Assembly: GCA_021324855.1 (NCBI GenBank)
Contig: JAJPIG010000015.1
Span: 124,001-188,000 of the forward strand
Direction: 5' to 3'
Length of the DNA: 64,000 nt
Source of the DNA: Pseudomonadota bacterium
GTDB lineage: Bacteria; Desulfobacterota; Binatia; Binatales; Binataceae
In this document: positions 5,472 to 49,481 of the stretch, one piece after another
How positions within the stretch are numbered: the stretch's first letter is position 1
Layout: every line of letters begins with the position of its first letter
Position numbers and translations under genes: made by a program
Notes under the pieces: generated by a model
Database searches by the model: none
The model's input: only the letters and a program-made list of their open reading frames with translations
Told to the model about the DNA's origin: nothing

Positions 5472-6583
5472 CAGAGATGCACCCCGTCTTGATTCGGAAC
5501 GATTACGCTCTTCACGGTTTCGAGACGCGCGACCGCTTCGAGCGCCTTCTGTGCTTCGGCGAGCGCGAAGCGATGGGTGACGACCTCGGCCATCGGAAAT
5601 TCGCGATGATGTGCGCGGGCGACCTGGATCGCGCCATAGATATGCTGTGGCTGAGCGAGGGCGTTCCCGATGATTCGGATATTGTTGTTGTTCAGATACC
5701 GCGGTTCGATCGGCACGGTCCCCGGCGCCGACCACAGTCCGATAATGAGATAGCGCCCGTTTTTCGCAACCAGCTTGATGCCCTCAGTGAAGGCCGGCAG
5801 ATGGCCCGCAGCTTCGATCACGACCTCGGCGCCGCGTCCATCGGTGAGGTCGCGCACCTGTTGCACCCGATCCGCTTCGGACTTGCAGGTTTCCAGATCG
5901 ATCGTCGTACTGGCGCCGAGCCGGCGCGCCATCTTAAGCCGCCGCTCCGGAGCGCCGATCACGATTACCTGTCGGGCGCCCGAAAGCCCCGCCATCATAG
6001 TGGCCGCGAGCCCCACCGGACCGCATCCTTGCACGACCACCGACTGATTGAGCTGAATTCCGCCGAGCCGCTCGAGAGCCTGCAACACCGTCGGCATCGC
6101 GCATCCAAAGGCGATCAGCGCCTCGGTTGGCGTATCATCGGGAACGCGATAAAAGGCCATCCCGGGCGGCAGGCTGCAGAACTCGGCATAGCAACTCGAG
6201 GGTGGATCGTTGGCGTTCCGGAACAGCTCCTCGAAGATGTTGTCACAGAGCGAGAAGTCCTTCTCGACAGTGCAGTAGTAACATCGATGGCACTGACGGA
6301 CCGGCTGCCAGTAGACGCGATCGCCGGGTTTGATGGGCGCGCCGGCATAATCGGTCGTGACTCCCTTTCCGAGCTCCTCGACTGTGGCGATTCCTTCATG
6401 GCCGAGTGTGACCGGATAGGGCAGGGGAACCTCGCCGCGCCATAAATGAACGTCGGTGCCGCATACGCCGCTCATCGCGACACGCACCACGGCGGCTCCC
6501 GGTTCCGGCTCCGGAATCGGTCGCTCCCAAACCTCGAGCGGCTGATTCGCGCCGACCAACACCACTCGCTTGCTCGTTCGCAT
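5471..6583 (-). CDS. zinc-dependent medium-chain alcohol dehydrogenase
   Basis: A 370-residue MDR-family dehydrogenase. It has the catalytic zinc site (GVCGTD and GHEG near the N-terminus), a complete structural zinc site (CHRCYYC plus a fourth Cys eight residues on), and a nucleotide-binding motif ([12 protein letters not shown]). It should oxidise an alcohol or reduce an aldehyde with NAD(P). The ATG at 6583 is preceded by GGAG at 8 nt and is preferred to an upstream TTG at 6616. Translationally coupled to the HpaB-type gene by a TGATG junction, so both probably act on the same compound. The gene opens the minus-strand cluster and is divergent from the SDR operon. Confidence 0.9.
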
Positions 6584-18599: not shown

Positions 18600-20051
18600 T
18601 TACGATTCGGCGGTCTCTTCCAATGCCTCGATCAGCCTCTCCATCTCGATTCCGCGCGAACCCTTGACCAGCAATACGTCGCCACTGCGGACGATGTTCC
18701 GGAGCGAACCGGCGGCCTCGCGGCTATTCTCAAACGAGCGGACATACAACATTGACGTGCCGTTCAACACCGCCTGGCATGCCGCGCCCATCGAGGGTCC
18801 CACCGCGATAAATTCGCTCGGGGATATCTGTGCCGCTTCGCGTACCGCTTCACGATGCATCTGGTCGCTGAGTGCGCCGAGCTCAAGCATATCGCCGAGC
18901 GCGACGATCAGTCTTGCGCCGCGAGCCCGCGCTATCTCGTTGGCCGTCGCAAGCGCGACGCGGACGGACCGCGGATTGGCATTGTAAGTGTCGTCGATCA
19001 CGACCACGTCGCCGACGATCCGCGCGTTAAGGCGTCCCGCTACGGGTGCGACGCTCTCGAGCGCGCTCGCGAGCGTATCGAGCTGCGCGCGCGAGAGAGG
19101 GGTGCGGCAAACGGCGGCAACCGCAGCGACCGCGGCGGCAGCGTTGCTGGCCGCCGCCGGTCCCAGCAGCTTGAGGCGGGCGCGGAGCTTCGCCTCCGCG
19201 CCCGCCTCAACCAGAGCCGGAGCGAGCCGCAAGGTGATCGCGGCTCGCTCCGGCTCCTCCGATGGTTCGCGTGTGAAGCAAACATCTGCGCCCGGGCCGG
19301 CGCCGAAGGTGACCGGGCGCATCCCGGCCGGGATGCGCCCGGTCACCTTCGGCTCATCCGCGGAAGCGACGGCTGTCCGCGCGCCGCTAAACAGCGATGC
19401 CTCCTCGTCGGCAATCTCGTCGATCGTGCCCAGACCCTCGCTATGCTCGATATCGACGTTGAGGACCAGCGCGACGTCCGGCATGAGAATGCCGGCAAGT
19501 CGCGCCACCTCGCCGCGCCGGTTCGTGCCGCATTCAATAACGGCGCTACGATGTTCTTCGGTGAGCGTGAAGAGCGTCATCGGCACGCCGATCAAATTGT
19601 TCAAATTGCCCGGCGTCTTGAGCGTAGGCGGAAATAGTGCGGCAGCAGCCGCGGCGGTAAGTTCCTTGGTTGTGGTCTTGCCGTTGGCGCCGCCGATCGC
19701 AATCACGCGCAGATCGGTTTTCGCACGGATTCTATCAAGATGATGCTTCGCCAATGCGCCCAACGCGGTCAGCGTATCGGGCACCTCGATGCAGGCTAGG
19801 CGCGCGTCGCCGCGGCCCCGCTCGACGATTGCTGCCGCCGCTCCGTGCTCGATTGCGGAGCCGAGATACTGATGGCCGTCGAAGCGCGCGCCGCGTAGCG
19901 CTACGAACAGTGCGCCGCGACGAATTGCCCTTGAGTCCGTGACTACTCCGGTGACGGAAGTATCGGGTAATCCAACGAGCGTGCCGCCGGTCGCAACGGC
20001 AACTTCATCGAGCGTGAAGCTGCACGAATTTGACGGAATCGGCGTCGCCAT
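18600..20051 (-). CDS. murF: UDP-N-acetylmuramoyl-tripeptide--D-alanyl-D-alanine ligase
   Basis: A 483-residue MurF that adds D-Ala-D-Ala to UDP-MurNAc-tripeptide in the cytoplasm. Visible features are TDSRAIRRGALFVAL near 38-52, the ATP-binding GGANGKTTTKE at 120-130, NLNNLIGVP, the NVDIEHSEGLG segment, and DDTYNANPRSV with GDMLELG in the C-terminal domain. AGGTGG lies 5 nt before the ATG at 20051, so the longer frame is rejected. It stands alone, away from the dcw cluster. The central-domain segment, residues 233-334, is packed with inverted repeats (see 19051-19353), yet the protein keeps its motifs and normal length. Confidence 0.95.
   Translation of the reverse strand: MATPIPSNSCSFTLDEVAVATGGTLVGLPDTSVTGVVTDSRAIRRGALFVALRGARFDGHQYLGSAIEHGAAAAIVERGRGDARLACIEVPDTLTALGALAKHHLDRIRAKTDLRVIAIGGANGKTTTKELTAAAAAALFPPTLKTPGNLNNLIGVPMTLFTLTEEHRSAVIECGTNRRGEVARLAGILMPDVALVLNVDIEHSEGLGTIDEIADEEASLFSGARTAVASADEPKVTGRIPAGMRPVTFGAGPGADVCFTREPSEEPERAAITLRLAPALVEAGAEAKLRARLKLLGPAAASNAAAAVAAVAAVCRTPLSRAQLDTLASALESVAPVAGRLNARIVGDVVVIDDTYNANPRSVRVALATANEIARARGARLIVALGDMLELGALSDQMHREAVREAAQISPSEFIAVGPSMGAACQAVLNGTSMLYVRSFENSREAAGSLRNIVRSGDVLLVKGSRGIEMERLIEALEETAES
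19051..19076. repeat. 26-bp near-perfect palindrome inside murF
   Basis: The two 13-nt halves are reverse complements except for one mismatch at the seventh position, with no spacer. It lies about 95 bp from the three perfect inverted repeats in the same gene. Confidence 0.75.
19171..19210. repeat. perfect inverted repeat inside murF, arms 17 bp, loop 6
   Basis: TTGAGGCGGGCGCGGAG at 19171-19187 is matched exactly by its reverse complement at 19194-19210 around the loop CTTCGC. On the murF strand the centre falls on a codon boundary. The coded segment (residues about 281-294) is a poorly conserved part of the protein. Confidence 0.93.
19214..19256. repeat. perfect inverted repeat inside murF, arms 17 bp, loop 9
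   Basis: GAGCCGGAGCGAGCCGC at 19214-19230 and its exact reverse complement at 19240-19256 flank a 9-nt loop. It starts only 3 nt beyond the previous repeat and is unrelated in sequence to it. Confidence 0.93.
19302..19353. repeat. perfect 52-bp palindrome inside murF, no spacer
   Basis: The 26 nt from GCCGAAGGTGACC at 19302 to 19327 are followed directly by their exact reverse complement through 19353. Neither side extends further. It codes residues 233-250 of MurF (PKVTGRIPAGMRPVTFG region) without a frame break. This is the longest perfect palindrome I found in the window. Confidence 0.95.
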
Positions 20052-46481: not shown

Positions 46482-47519
46482 TCATACTTTCATTGCGGCG
46501 AGCGCCTGAGCTGCGATTTCGCGCATCCGAATGCTCATCGAATTCTCGGGGTCGATGGCGACTAATGGTCGAGCGTGATCGCCGCCTTCGCGCAACTCTC
46601 GCACGATCGGCAACTCGCCGAGAAACGGAACACCAAGCTCGCCGGCGAGCCGCGCGCCGCCGCCGTGGGCGAAGATCTCGTGACGCGCGCCGCATTTGCG
46701 GCACAGATGATAACTCAGGTTCTCGACGACTCCGAGCACCGGCACGCCGACTTCGCGGAACATCGCGATGCCGCGCCGGACGTCAAGCAGCGCGATTTCC
46801 TGAGGCGTGGTAACGATGATTCCGCCATCAAGCGCGACCCGCTGTGTGATCGTCAACTGTGCATCGCCGGTGCCGGGCGGCAGATCGAGCACCAGGCAAT
46901 CGAGGTCGCCCCATTCGACGTTGAACAGAAACTCGCTCTCGAGCTTGGTAACCATCGGACCGCGCCAGATGATCGCGGTTTCCTCATCGACGAACAGCGC
47001 CATCGAGACGTACCGGATTCCGAAGCGCTCCAACGGCACGATGCGCCGCGCTTCGGTGATGCGCACCCGCTCGTCCGCGCCGACCATCATTGCGACGCTC
47101 GGCCCGTAGACATCGGCATCCATCAGTCCGACTTTTCTGCCGAGTGATGCGATCGCAAGCGCGAGGTTGACCGCGACCGTCGATTTGCCGACGCCGCCCT
47201 TGCCACTGGCGACCGCGAGTACGCGCTTGACGCCCGGGATCGGCTGGCGCGGCAAGGCCGCGGCGCTGCGCGGCGTCGGCGCGCGTTCCACGTTAACTTC
47301 GACGGCGGGCACGCCTTCGATCGCGGAGACGCTCCGTTTCACCTCTTCGACGATGCGCTCGATCACCTCGGGCTTCGTAGTTGGCGCCGATAGCATCACG
47401 GTGACGCCGCGCTGGGCGACTTCGATGTCCTTGACCATCCCGAACGAGACAATATCGCGTGAAAGTCCGGGGTACCTGATTTTCCGGAGCTCGGTGAGAA
47501 TTTCGTTGGGCGTCGGCAT
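46482..47519 (-). CDS. mrp: Mrp/NBP35-family iron-sulfur cluster carrier ATPase (ApbC-like)
   Basis: A 345-residue protein with an N-terminal DUF59/MIP18-like domain (about 1-85) and a deviant-Walker A P-loop NTPase (ASGKGGVGKSTVAVNL near 109-124). The CxxC that binds the bridging [4Fe-4S] cluster is in LCRKCGARHEIF near 272-283. The DLPPGTGDAQLTITQ segment is diagnostic. It carries and inserts Fe-S clusters in the cytoplasm, needed by the molybdenum and radical enzymes of such organisms. Divergent from the DUF4838 gene. Confidence 0.95.
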   Translation of the reverse strand: MPTPNEILTELRKIRYPGLSRDIVSFGMVKDIEVAQRGVTVMLSAPTTKPEVIERIVEEVKRSVSAIEGVPAVEVNVERAPTPRSAAALPRQPIPGVKRVLAVASGKGGVGKSTVAVNLALAIASLGRKVGLMDADVYGPSVAMMVGADERVRITEARRIVPLERFGIRYVSMALFVDEETAIIWRGPMVTKLESEFLFNVEWGDLDCLVLDLPPGTGDAQLTITQRVALDGGIIVTTPQEIALLDVRRGIAMFREVGVPVLGVVENLSYHLCRKCGARHEIFAHGGGARLAGELGVPFLGELPIVRELREGGDHARPLVAIDPENSMSIRMREIAAQALAAMKV

Positions 47520-47624
47520 GCTGAGAGTGAAACGGGGGACTGCGCTTTTGGTCCAAAAATTCTAAAGTCGACCTGATGTTATCATCCGGCGGAGGACCCA
47601 CAAACCGGCGTGCGGAGGGACGCG

Positions 47625-49481
47625 ATGTCATCGGCTGACGATGTGGCCGGGGGCAAAGCGGACCGCATCGCGGTCCGCTTTGCCCCCGGCGATCGCGCCG
47701 CGCCGTTCGCGGCGCGCGGGCTCGCGACCCGGCTCGCCGCGATGCTGGGCGAGCCGGTCGCCGCACTCCCTGCGGCCGAACTCGACGGCCCTCGCCTTGT
47801 CCTTGAGTTCGGCCGCCCCGGAGCGGAGGTCGCCGGCGGGGGCCGCGACATCGTCGCGGCCCCCGCCGGCGACGGCTACCGCATCGAGCGCGACGCATGC
47901 TCGATTGTAATTACCGGTGGCAGCGGACGCGGTCTGCTCCACGCCGTCGGCGACCTGTTCGAACAGCTCGGCGCGAGCTTCGCTCCCTGGCGCGATCCCG
48001 AATTTCCGGCGCATCTCGATCGCGCGAGGCTTGAGCGCGTCGCATCGCGCACGGTCGCTCCGGCATTTGAACGCCGTGCGTTCGCCTCCGACCTGCTGAC
48101 CTGGCATTACGAGGATGCGGGTCGCCGCGCGGAGCATCTTGTGCACGATCGCCTGTTCGTACCGTGGATGACTGCGCGCGGCATGAACGCCTTCCTGTTC
48201 ATTCGGCACCTGCAGGACATGCGCGTCCGGGTCGATGAACTTGTGCCGATGCTCGAGCGTTTTCAGGTGAATGCGGAGTACGGCGGCCATATCGTGCCGC
48301 AACTGATGCCGCGCGCGTTGTTCGATTCGCACCCGGAATATTTCGCCGCCGGCGCCGATGGCACACGCATTACACTCGGGAACTTTTGCGTATCGAACGA
48401 AGACGCGCTCGCGCTCGTGCATGAGAACGCGCTCGCTTTCGCACGCGATTACCCCGAGAACCGGATGGCCCATGTATGGGGCGCAGATTTGAGGGATGGC
48501 GGATGGTGCCAATGCGCCGCGTGCGAAGCGCTTTCGCCGCAGCTCCAATACATGAAGGTCGTCGACACGGTCGCGCGATCGCTCGCCGAGTCGGGCATCG
48601 AGGTTCCGGTTGCTTACCTTGCCTATCACGATACGCTCGCGCCCGATCCTTCGCTCAAGCCGCGCGAGAATGTCTGGTTCGAATGGGCGCCGCGCGAGCG
48701 ATGCTACGCGCATGCGATCGACGACGCCGAATGCGCCGTGAATCGCGAATATTATCCGTGGCTCGAACGCTACCTCGAGATTTTCGACGGCCGCGGGATG
48801 ATCTTCGAATATTACGCGGATGCGATCCTGTTCGGCGGCCTGAGCTTCGCCACGCCCGGCGTGATCGTGCGCGATCTGCAAGCCTACCATGGCATCGGAA
48901 TCCGCTCGGTCTCATGCCTGACCTTCGGCGCCTTCAGCGTCTTTGGTTATCCGCTGAACCTTGAGACTTTCGCGCGCGCCACACGCTCGCTCGATTATGA
49001 TCCCGAACACGCCGCCGTCGAGATCGCCCGCACGCGCCATCCGCGATGCGCCGCCGAAATAACCAACGCGTACCGCGCGATCGAGCGCGCCTCCACGCTC
49101 GCACTTCGCTACGGCGACGTGCTGCGCCCATTCAATTCGGATGCGCAGCCGGCCGCGCTGCGCCTTGCTCATCGATCATTTGCGGAGGCAATAGATGCCG
49201 CTGACCATGTGCCGGGAACCGACGCGATGCCTAGGCTTGCGGCGGAGCGCGACCTGTGGCGGCTCAGCCGCGATGCGCTCGTCGGACTCGCCGATTACGT
49301 TGCCGCGCGCGACGAGCGCGGCGATGCGCGCCGCGCGGCAGGCGAGGCCGCGATCCGCAAAATCGAGTCGGCGCTGATGCAGATGCATCCGATCGCCGCC
49401 GAATTCAAGGGTACCTGGGGCCAGTACGATTTCGAGCACCTGGTGCCGCGATGGCTCGACAGGCTCCGTCGGCAACTCTGA
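47625..49481 (+). CDS. DUF4838-domain protein (GH20-like, probable polysaccharide-related)
   Basis: A 618-residue protein. Residues about 1-125 resemble the N-terminal beta domain seen before hexosaminidase-type barrels; the following barrel has WCQCAAC at 294-300, a hallmark of DUF4838, plus GHIVPQLMPRALFDSHPEYF. No signal peptide is evident. The family is related to glycoside hydrolases, but activity is unproven. GGAGG at 7 nt before the ATG at 47625 fixes the start. Residues 8-83 are coded by a chain of inverted repeats (47646-47873), two of which are exact 15-codon palindromes. Divergent from mrp, convergent with the CmcJ-like gene. Confidence 0.83.
   Translation: MSSADDVAGGKADRIAVRFAPGDRAAPFAARGLATRLAAMLGEPVAALPAAELDGPRLVLEFGRPGAEVAGGGRDIVAAPAGDGYRIERDACSIVITGGSGRGLLHAVGDLFEQLGASFAPWRDPEFPAHLDRARLERVASRTVAPAFERRAFASDLLTWHYEDAGRRAEHLVHDRLFVPWMTARGMNAFLFIRHLQDMRVRVDELVPMLERFQVNAEYGGHIVPQLMPRALFDSHPEYFAAGADGTRITLGNFCVSNEDALALVHENALAFARDYPENRMAHVWGADLRDGGWCQCAACEALSPQLQYMKVVDTVARSLAESGIEVPVAYLAYHDTLAPDPSLKPRENVWFEWAPRERCYAHAIDDAECAVNREYYPWLERYLEIFDGRGMIFEYYADAILFGGLSFATPGVIVRDLQAYHGIGIRSVSCLTFGAFSVFGYPLNLETFARATRSLDYDPEHAAVEIARTRHPRCAAEITNAYRAIERASTLALRYGDVLRPFNSDAQPAALRLAHRSFAEAIDAADHVPGTDAMPRLAAERDLWRLSRDALVGLADYVAARDERGDARRAAGEAAIRKIESALMQMHPIAAEFKGTWGQYDFEHLVPRWLDRLRRQL
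47646..47690. repeat. perfect 21-3-21 inverted repeat in the DUF4838 gene, exactly 15 codons
   Basis: The 21 nt beginning GCCGGGGGCAAAGCGG at 47646-47666 and their exact reverse complement at 47670-47690 flank the loop ATC. The element starts on a codon boundary and ends on one, so it is 15 whole codons with the Ile codon ATC at the centre, and every codon pairs with a codon. Neither arm extends further. Confidence 0.96.
47694..47716. repeat. inverted repeat 9-5-9 in the DUF4838 gene
   Basis: CGCGCCGCG and its exact reverse complement CGCGGCGCG flank CCGTT, 3 nt after the first long palindrome. Small and GC-only, so weak by itself; listed because it continues the chain. Confidence 0.6.
47729..47757. 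repeat. inverted repeat 10-9-10 in the DUF4838 gene
   Basis: CCGGCTCGCC at 47729-47738 and GGCGAGCCGG at 47748-47757 are exact reverse complements with a 9-nt loop. Confidence 0.65.
47772..47816. repeat. inverted repeat 12-21-12 in the DUF4838 gene, spanning 15 codons
   Basis: GCGGCCGAACTC at 47772-47783 and its exact reverse complement GAGTTCGGCCGC at 47805-47816 flank 21 nt. Like the two long repeats the unit is 45 nt and starts on a codon boundary; its interior is only partly complementary, as if an older copy had decayed. Confidence 0.8.
47829..47873. repeat. perfect 21-3-21 inverted repeat in the DUF4838 gene, exactly 15 codons
   Basis: The 21 nt beginning GTCGCCGGCGGGGGCC at 47829-47849 and their exact reverse complement at 47853-47873 flank the loop ATC. 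Same size, codon phase and central Ile codon as the element at 47646-47690, but the arm sequence is different, so this is not a copy of it. Confidence 0.96.

What the first reader, a model, noticed from the sequence alone, without database searches (positions are those of the whole stretch)
47646..47873. Two exact 15-codon palindromes with the same ATC loop, within a chain of hairpins, inside the DUF4838 gene
Both 21-3-21 elements (47646-47690 and 47829-47873) are perfect, start on a codon boundary, are 45 nt long, and have the Ile codon ATC as loop, yet their arms are unrelated. A third 45-nt, codon-phased unit (47772-47816) keeps only its outer 12 bp, and two shorter repeats fill the gaps. 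Shared architecture without shared sequence argues against transposon copies and for a process that writes palindromes into the frame (template switching or hairpin-templated repair), or for selection on an RNA or DNA structure. Even at a pairing chance of 0.3 per base, 21 perfect pairs should not occur once in this window, let alone twice in one gene.
Basis: seen in the sequence. Interest (0 to 1): 0.82.

Follow-up and report, generated by a model that had tools for sequence, protein, structure and literature searches.

The report
Clustered perfect palindromes inside bacterial genes
A soil bacterium carries perfect DNA palindromes, sometimes several in one working protein gene; they look like scars of DNA copying that folds back on itself, a known kind of mutation seen here in unusually long and clustered form.

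Summary
The two 21-3-21 palindromes are exactly as described and beyond chance. They are not unique: murF in the same window carries three more. A 21% sample of this genome holds 17 hairpins with perfect arms of at least 15 nt; 16 triplet-shuffled copies held one in total. They cluster (7 pairs within 150 bp, 0.07 expected). Eleven of 17 are clearly inside genes, 3 uncertain, 3 upstream of any likely start codon. Sequences are unrelated; codon phases and loops vary, so codon phasing and the shared ATC loop are coincidence. Most orthologues read lack them. In murF the sister species has quasi-palindromes at the same places (19/26, 13/17, 9/17 pairs). Two species of another genus share a palindrome with a compensatory, amino-acid-changing pair swap, and one has perfect arms where the other has mismatches. 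Best explanation: fold-back template switching that creates and perfects palindromes, filtered by protein tolerance. The host is a Binataceae bacterium; the palindrome nuclease SbcCD was not detected in it or most family members searched, a possible permissive factor. Known kind of mutation, unusual in length and clustering.

The parts
47610..49481 (+). Host gene 1: DUF4838-family protein (start GTG 47610 or ATG 47625), open frame intact
   Evidence: 34 of 57 genomes searched have a match
47646..47690 (.). Perfect palindrome 21-3-21, loop ATC (residues 8-22 from ATG 47625)
   Evidence: 5' arm 5/21 and 3' arm 12/21 identical to sister species G001, so the 3' arm is the likelier template
47694..47716 (.). 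Short hairpin 9-5-9 in the chain
   Evidence: fold
47724..47761 (.). Imperfect hairpin (6+8 pairs, bulge) in the chain
   Evidence: (10-9-10 core)
47772..47816 (.). Partial palindrome, 12 perfect outer pairs, 21-nt centre
47829..47873 (.). Perfect palindrome 21-3-21, loop ATC (residues 69-83), in an indel-rich stretch of the protein alignment
18600..20051 (-). Host gene 2: murF (UDP-N-acetylmuramoyl-tripeptide--D-alanyl-D-alanine ligase), frame intact; exact start not settled
19171..19210 (.). Perfect palindrome 17-6-17 in murF; 9/17 pairs in G001
19214..19256 (.). Perfect palindrome 17-9-17 in murF; 13/17 pairs in G001
19302..19353 (.). Perfect palindrome 26-0-26 in murF; 19/26 pairs in G001, no indel

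Best explanation
These are palindromes made by local template switching (quasi-palindrome correction), several of them inside coding sequence. While copying a stretch able to fold back, the nascent strand snaps back on itself through a tight turn, is extended for about 15-26 nt using its own just-made sequence as template, then returns to the proper template. One arm so becomes the reverse complement of the other: this perfects an existing quasi-palindrome (murF) or writes a largely new arm (DUF4838, where the 5' arm looks like a copy of the more conserved 3' arm). Inside genes only events that keep the frame and fall in tolerant parts of the protein survive. Shown: excess over shuffles, clustering, unrelated sequences, quasi-palindromes in the sister species' murF, and better-paired arms with one compensatory pair between two other sister species. 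Inferred: the enzymology, the direction of copying, and why several hairpins of one gene are affected (a single-stranded stretch folding into a chain of hairpins). Lack of SbcCD is a possible permissive condition, not shown to be causal.
For: 17 hairpins with arms >=15 in 793 kb against one in 16 shuffled copies; without the window, which was chosen for its palindromes, 12 in 729 kb. Seven pairs within 150 bp against a mean of 0.068 and a maximum of 3 in 20,000 random placements. G001 murF pairs 19/26, 13/17 and 9/17 at the three sites; 29 orthologues average 0.42, 0.42, 0.37 against slid controls of 0.26, 0.29, 0.26. G029/G019 murF (81% nt identity): a shared 23-bp palindrome (21/23 pairs in G019) with one pair A-T in G029 and G-C in G019, changing His/Arg and Val/Ala; 15/15, 12/12 and 13/13 pairs in G029 against 12/15, 9/12 and 10/13 in G019. 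DUF4838: 3' arms closer to G001 than 5' arms (12/21 v 5/21; 10/21 v 4 of 12 aligned). Stems >=17 bp in open frames: 12 with 0, 3 with 1, 1 with 2 mismatches. No word longer than 12 nt shared between hairpins, orthologous G019/G029 apart. The mechanism is described for E. coli (PMC7202029, passages), yeast coding genes (PMC8604942, abstract and discussion) and RNA genes (PMC8794818, abstract).
Against: No palindrome was caught in a close (>95%) before-and-after pair; G001 is 67-68% identical in DNA, and the direction of change between G029 and G019 is not polarised, so decay in G019 is possible. For DUF4838 palindrome 1 G001 shows no quasi-palindrome (4/21), and orthologues barely exceed the slid control (0.31 v 0.28). 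In murF both arms differ from G001, so a single one-way copy is not demonstrated. Pairing in orthologues can exceed the slid control partly through common descent. Clustering by gene is not predicted by plain template switching. G001 lacks detectable SbcCD too, yet shows no such hairpin in the two genes or in 40 kb sampled. Long perfect hairpins also occur in other phyla: 5 with arms >=17 in 237 kb of 17 DUF4838 loci outside the family, three of them in one contig.
Confidence: 0.78

Rival explanations
1. Selection for an RNA or DNA hairpin (mRNA stability, pausing, protein binding) built the palindromes.
For: The DUF4838 and murF stretches are the only regions of the window below z -4 in a folding scan. 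Bacterial mRNAs are reported to be more structured than shuffles (PMC4060949, passages). Stems with one or a few wobble pairs also exceed the single shuffle.
Against: Perfect hairpins (arm >=13) are present in only 6 of 30 murF loci and 4 of 30 DUF4838 loci, at differing places with unrelated sequence; strictly Watson-Crick stems are the largest class when wobble pairs are allowed; no Rfam match in 47000-48500.
Confidence: 0.08
2. Palindromic mobile elements inserted in frame, like Rickettsia palindromic elements (RPE).
For: DUF4838 of G013 and G005 carries extra residues in the palindromic stretches.
Against: No word over 12 nt shared among 31 hairpins except orthologous G019/G029; the murF 26-0-26, 17-9-17 and 17-6-17 sites align to G001 without indels; the 301-bp query finds no second full copy in its genome.
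Confidence: 0.02
3. Assembly or amplification artefact (foldback chimeras).
For: Most relatives with record titles are metagenome-assembled genomes; raw reads could not be seen.
Against: Each of the 17 hairpins is 30-57 nt, shorter than an ordinary read; frames of murF and DUF4838 are intact; two separate species assemblies (G019, G029) share a palindrome at the same place.
Confidence: 0.04
4. Chance in GC-rich, low-complexity linkers under strong codon bias.
For: The 17 hairpins average 77% GC and some lie in low-complexity linkers.
Against: Triplet shuffling within 90-nt or 300-nt blocks, which keeps local composition, gives one hairpin with arms >=15 in 16 copies of 793 kb against 17 observed.
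Confidence: 0.02

Closest known systems
Coding palindromes in mitochondrial genes of Nematomorpha (PMC6649704; abstract, discussion and passages seen)
   Same: Perfect inverted repeats inside working protein genes, gained and lost between species, nearly all long ones without mismatches; template switching proposed as one cause.
   Different: Those are mitochondrial, up to 284 bp, in conserved protein regions, and above 65 bp only in phases 1 and 2. These are bacterial, 30-57 nt, clustered, where comparable mostly in variable or linker parts of the proteins, and phase 3 occurs (8 of 28).
Quasi-palindrome-associated template-switch mutation in E. coli (PMC7202029, passages)
   Same: Nascent strand used as template turns a quasi-palindrome into a more perfect inverted repeat.
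   Different: There a reporter and mutation hotspots; here the accumulated natural product in a genome, up to three or four per gene.
Template switching in S. cerevisiae coding genes (PMC8604942, abstract and discussion)
   Same: Arm homogenisation of inverted repeats changing amino acids in wild-type genes.
   Different: Yeast; most events gave a single amino-acid change, not clusters of long palindromes.
[quoted passage not shown]
   Same: Same proposed cause, template switching in bacterial genes.
   Different: Much shorter repeats; no clustering described in the passages seen.
Rickettsia palindromic elements (as described in PMC6649704; further details recalled)
   Same: Palindromes inside bacterial protein genes.
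   Different: RPEs are a repeated family said to lose arm identity over time; these share no sequence.

Membership tests
Quasi-palindrome template-switch product | Arms more perfect than in a relative that holds a quasi-palindrome at the same place | tested here: met
   murF: G001 19/26, 13/17, 9/17; G019 12/15, 9/12, 10/13 against perfect in G029. Not met for DUF4838 palindrome 1 (G001 4/21).
Quasi-palindrome template-switch product | One arm changed as a block into the reverse complement of the other, in a close before/after pair | tested here: inconclusive
   DUF4838 3' arms are closer to G001 than 5' arms; in murF both arms differ; no palindrome-bearing pair above 81% identity was compared.
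Quasi-palindrome template-switch product | Arms evolve in concert | tested here: met
   One compensatory pair (A-T/G-C, both amino-acid changing) between G029 and G019; it is a single pair.
Nematomorpha-type coding palindromes | Perfect inverted repeats within intact protein-coding genes, with more perfect than imperfect stems | tested here: met
   Stems >=17 bp in open frames >=200 codons: 12 perfect, 4 imperfect; of the 12, 8 are clearly past a start codon, 2 uncertain (L080), 2 probably upstream (L077, L078).
Nematomorpha-type coding palindromes | Repeats over 65 bp only in phases 1 and 2 | not testable with these tools
   none of the 17 here is that long; 8 of 28 are phase 3
Rickettsia palindromic element type mobile palindrome | Repeated, related sequence at many sites | tested here: not met

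The most novel reading that the evidence does not exclude
Some Binataceae lineages without the palindrome nuclease SbcCD have a strong fold-back copying mutator that rewrites runs of 100-250 nt at a time into chains of adjacent perfect hairpins and then keeps the arms identical, so that protein linkers and surface loops are partly made from the reverse complement of neighbouring codons.
Probability: 0.28. Interest if true: 0.72.

Novelty: new variant of a known kind. Interest (0 to 1): 0.5.

Why it matters
Template switching is hard to see in nature because it usually leaves only a few clustered substitutions. Here a bacterial lineage keeps long perfect products inside genes, among them murF of cell-wall synthesis, several per gene, with quasi-palindromes at the same places in a sister species. 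That gives natural material for asking how fold-back copying shapes proteins, whether absence of SbcCD lets palindromes persist, and whether such multi-base changes are misread as positive selection.

Tried and rejected
Tried and led nowhere: Rfam scan of 47000-48500 (no match); loss of ExoVII or MutS as cause (xseA over cut-off in 38 of 38, mutS in 37 of 38 genomes searched); a plain 'no SbcCD means palindromes' rule (G001 and most family members searched also lack it). The wobble-pair test (loops >=3, one shuffle) was only mildly informative, since stems with wobbles also exceed the shuffle. One search translated the wrong strand for many loci and was redone. Considered and rejected: mobile palindromes, chance in GC-rich linkers, conserved RNA element. 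The ATC loop seemed a possible signature (it also occurs in a G005 hairpin), but the other loops differ and ATC is an Ile codon at the turn.

Literature searched for earlier reports: (library of open PubMed Central papers only). No report of long clustered coding palindromes in a bacterial chromosome was seen in those listings. PMC4060949 (passages) says that coding palindromes are over-represented in some bacterial genera and suppressed in others, and cites Ladoukakis and Eyre-Walker for an excess of 6-9 bp inverted repeats in coding sequence with template switching as a cause.

Full report
Observation. The sequence at 47646-47690 and 47829-47873 holds two perfect 21-3-21 inverted repeats with loop ATC, in frame with a gene of 618 or 623 codons on the + strand. 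Pfam finds DUF4838 at residues 205-404 (E 1.8e-15); the palindromes lie before it, in the first ~83 residues. A 12-21-12 unit (47772-47816) and two shorter hairpins (47694-47716, 47724-47761) lie between them. The 260-nt stretch folds as single-stranded DNA at -127 kcal/mol, z -10.5, 0 of 200 shuffles as good; the 138-nt gap between the perfect palindromes alone has z -4.0, 0 of 100 triplet shuffles as good. It is not general: of the gaps tested in other clusters, those in murF, the ArnT-like and UDG-like frames, one of two in G005 and one of two in G029 do not fold clearly better than shuffles.

Not one gene. A scan of the window for perfect arms >=11 nt and loop <=30 finds nine hairpins; all six with arms >=12 lie in two genes, three in the DUF4838 gene and three in murF (17-6-17 at 19171, 17-9-17 at 19214, 26-0-26 at 19302). 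A folding scan (638 windows of 201 nt at 100-nt steps, 16 triplet shuffles each) shows only these two regions below z -4.

Genome level. The window is part of a 3,745,790-base assembly in 38 contigs. I took 729,091 further bases in 40 stretches; with the window, 793,091 bases, 21% of the genome. It holds 31, 26, 17 and 13 hairpins with perfect arms >=12, 13, 15 and 17 nt and loop <=20; without the window, 12 and 8 for >=15 and >=17. Eight triplet shuffles in 90-nt blocks gave 0-5, 0-2 and 0 for >=12, >=13 and >=15; eight in 300-nt blocks gave 1-5, 0-2 and one hairpin in total. Seven pairs of the 17 lie within 150 bp of each other; random placement gives 0.068 on average and at most 3 in 20,000 trials.

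Where they lie. Eleven of the 17 sit, two or three together, in five frames: murF (3), DUF4838 (2), a uracil-DNA-glycosylase-superfamily protein (2, before the UDG domain), a PmbA/TldD-like metallopeptidase (2, before its central domain) and an ArnT-like PMT glycosyltransferase (2) (Pfam; murF). One each lies in the linker between the E3-binding and catalytic domains of a 2-oxoacid dehydrogenase acyltransferase and in a protein without Pfam match. Start codons matter: 11 hairpins (murF 3, DUF4838 2, UDG-like 2, TldD-like 2, acyltransferase 1, the unmatched protein 1) are past a possible start of a long frame; the two of the ArnT-like frame are uncertain (only GTG or TTG starts nearby) and one (L066) is in a doubtful frame; L078 and L209 precede every ATG, GTG or TTG of their frames, and L077 overlaps a lone TTG and precedes the first ATG. 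L077 also resembles a second hairpin 3 kb away and may be a dispersed repeat. Of stems >=17 bp inside stop-to-stop frames of at least 200 codons, 12 are perfect, 3 have one and 1 has two mismatches; outside such frames there are 3, all with one mismatch. Of the 12, 8 are clearly past a start codon.

Comparison. Ten 50-kb stretches of two soil alphaproteobacterial replicons of GC 0.615-0.693 (500 kb) hold 11, 2 and 0 hairpins with arms >=13, 15 and 17. Stretches of 18 class-level relatives (400 kb) hold 7, 4 and 2, both of the longest in one genome. Stretches of 30 other family genomes (1,131,702 bases) hold 31, 13 and 8, but 8 of the 13 are in murF or DUF4838 genes that the chosen stretches contained, leaving 5 elsewhere. 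Twenty-seven named loci of the family type (470,650 bases, largely the same genomes) hold 7 with arms >=14, three of them the G005 DUF4838 ones. Against a simple story, 17 DUF4838 loci of other lineages (237,454 bases) hold 9 with arms >=14 and 5 with arms >=17, three of these five in one Chloroflexaceae contig, two of them outside open frames. So this genome is enriched over its family and over the two replicons, on modest samples; long hairpins as such are not confined to it.

Orthologues. DUF4838 matches were found in 34 of 57 genomes and murF in 57 of 57; 30 loci of each were read. Perfect hairpins with arms >=13 and loop <=30 occur in 4 of 30 DUF4838 loci (G000, G005, G013, G025) and 6 of 30 murF loci (G000, G013, G017, G019, G025, G029), at differing places. 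The sister species G001 has none in either locus. The murF palindromes are colinear with G001 without indels. At the three sites G001 pairs 19/26, 13/17 and 9/17, and 29 orthologues average 0.42, 0.42 and 0.37 against slid controls of 0.26, 0.29 and 0.26; part of this excess may reflect common descent. For DUF4838 palindrome 1 G001 pairs 4/21, and 24 orthologues average 0.31 against 0.28; the 3' arm is closer to G001 than the 5' arm (12/21 against 5/21), and likewise for palindrome 2 (10/21 against 4 of 12 aligned). So murF looks like perfected quasi-palindromes, DUF4838 like an arm written largely anew from its neighbour. Most palindromes of G013, G025 and G005 show little or no excess pairing in orthologues, or too few orthologues align to tell; G017's 14-16-14 shows 0.46 against 0.33.

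Sister pair. G029 and G019 murF (1173 of 1440 nt identical) share a palindrome at the same place: 23-1-23 in G029, 21 of 23 pairs kept in G019. One pair is A-T in G029 and G-C in G019, changing His/Arg on one side and Val/Ala on the other. Three further perfect hairpins of G029 (15-19-15, 12-13-12, 13-1-13) are quasi-palindromes in G019 with 12/15, 9/12 and 10/13 pairs. Arm-to-arm copying predicts this; the direction of each change is not polarised, and hairpins were picked for being perfect in G029.

No sequence family. Among 31 hairpins of this genome and its relatives, shared words are 10-12 nt; the sole longer match (14 nt) is the orthologous G019/G029 pair. Twenty-eight hairpins of arms >=14 read in their frames fall in phase 2 (15), phase 3 (8) and phase 1 (5); that count includes L078 and the two of L080, whose coding status is negative or uncertain. 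Loops of the 17 hairpins are 0,0,0,1,2,2,2,2,2,3,3,3,3,6,9,9,13.

Host and repair genes. Contigs with the nearest homologues carry titles such as Deltaproteobacteria bacterium, Proteobacteria bacterium, Candidatus Binataceae bacterium and Candidatus Binatus soli; a contig of the last has the length of G015:C3, and G015 is of the same family as the window's genome, so the host is a member of Binataceae (phylum name Binatota recalled). SbcD scores above its cut-off in 6 of 38 genomes and in 1 of the 24 family members searched (G004); G000 has only weak partial hits. Long SbcC matches occur in the same six genomes and, starting at a contig end and with one stop, in G007; no genome reaches the SbcC cut-off, which only one of 14 control genomes reaches, so length was the guide. 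XseA is over cut-off in 38 of 38, MutS in 37 of 38. Lack of SbcCD may let palindromes survive; since G001 also lacks it, it cannot be sufficient.

Mechanism. Fold-back copying of the nascent strand turns quasi-palindromes into more perfect palindromes in E. coli (PMC7202029, passages), changes yeast coding genes (PMC8604942, abstract and discussion) and is argued to create and maintain RNA stems (PMC8794818, abstract). The closest natural case is the coding palindromes of Nematomorpha mitochondria (PMC6649704; abstract, discussion and passages), also perfect, dynamic and of unestablished mechanism. I infer template switching here. The clustering suggests that a single-stranded stretch folds into several hairpins and is rewritten in one episode, but that step is not shown.

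Limits. No reads, no close strain pair, partial genome sampling, draft assemblies, few control genomes, gene starts not established experimentally. 

Noticed in passing
L077:2639-2679 and 5928-5984 (G000, contig C14): Two hairpins 3 kb apart share the word AGCAGCGGCCCGGA and similar surroundings: probably a dispersed palindromic repeat, unlike the coding palindromes.
   Followed up: no
24 family genomes: SbcCD appears to be missing from most of the family searched (only G004 has SbcD over cut-off), yet present in members of families f4, f5 and f8 of the class.
   Followed up: partly
L193:1036-1653 (Chloroflexaceae contig): Five perfect hairpins with arms of 15-24 nt within 620 bp, four of them outside open frames of 120 codons or more.
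   Followed up: no
L143:10092-10191 (G055): A 42-16-42 perfect inverted repeat, perhaps a mobile or dispersed repeat.
   Followed up: no
G003: No MutS match over the family cut-off in an assembly rated 96% complete, while the 37 other genomes searched have one.
   Followed up: no
G000:C9:384904-384938: A 35-base stretch 92% identical to window 47688-47723, the 9-bp hairpin between the palindromes; perhaps only GC-rich similarity.
   Followed up: no
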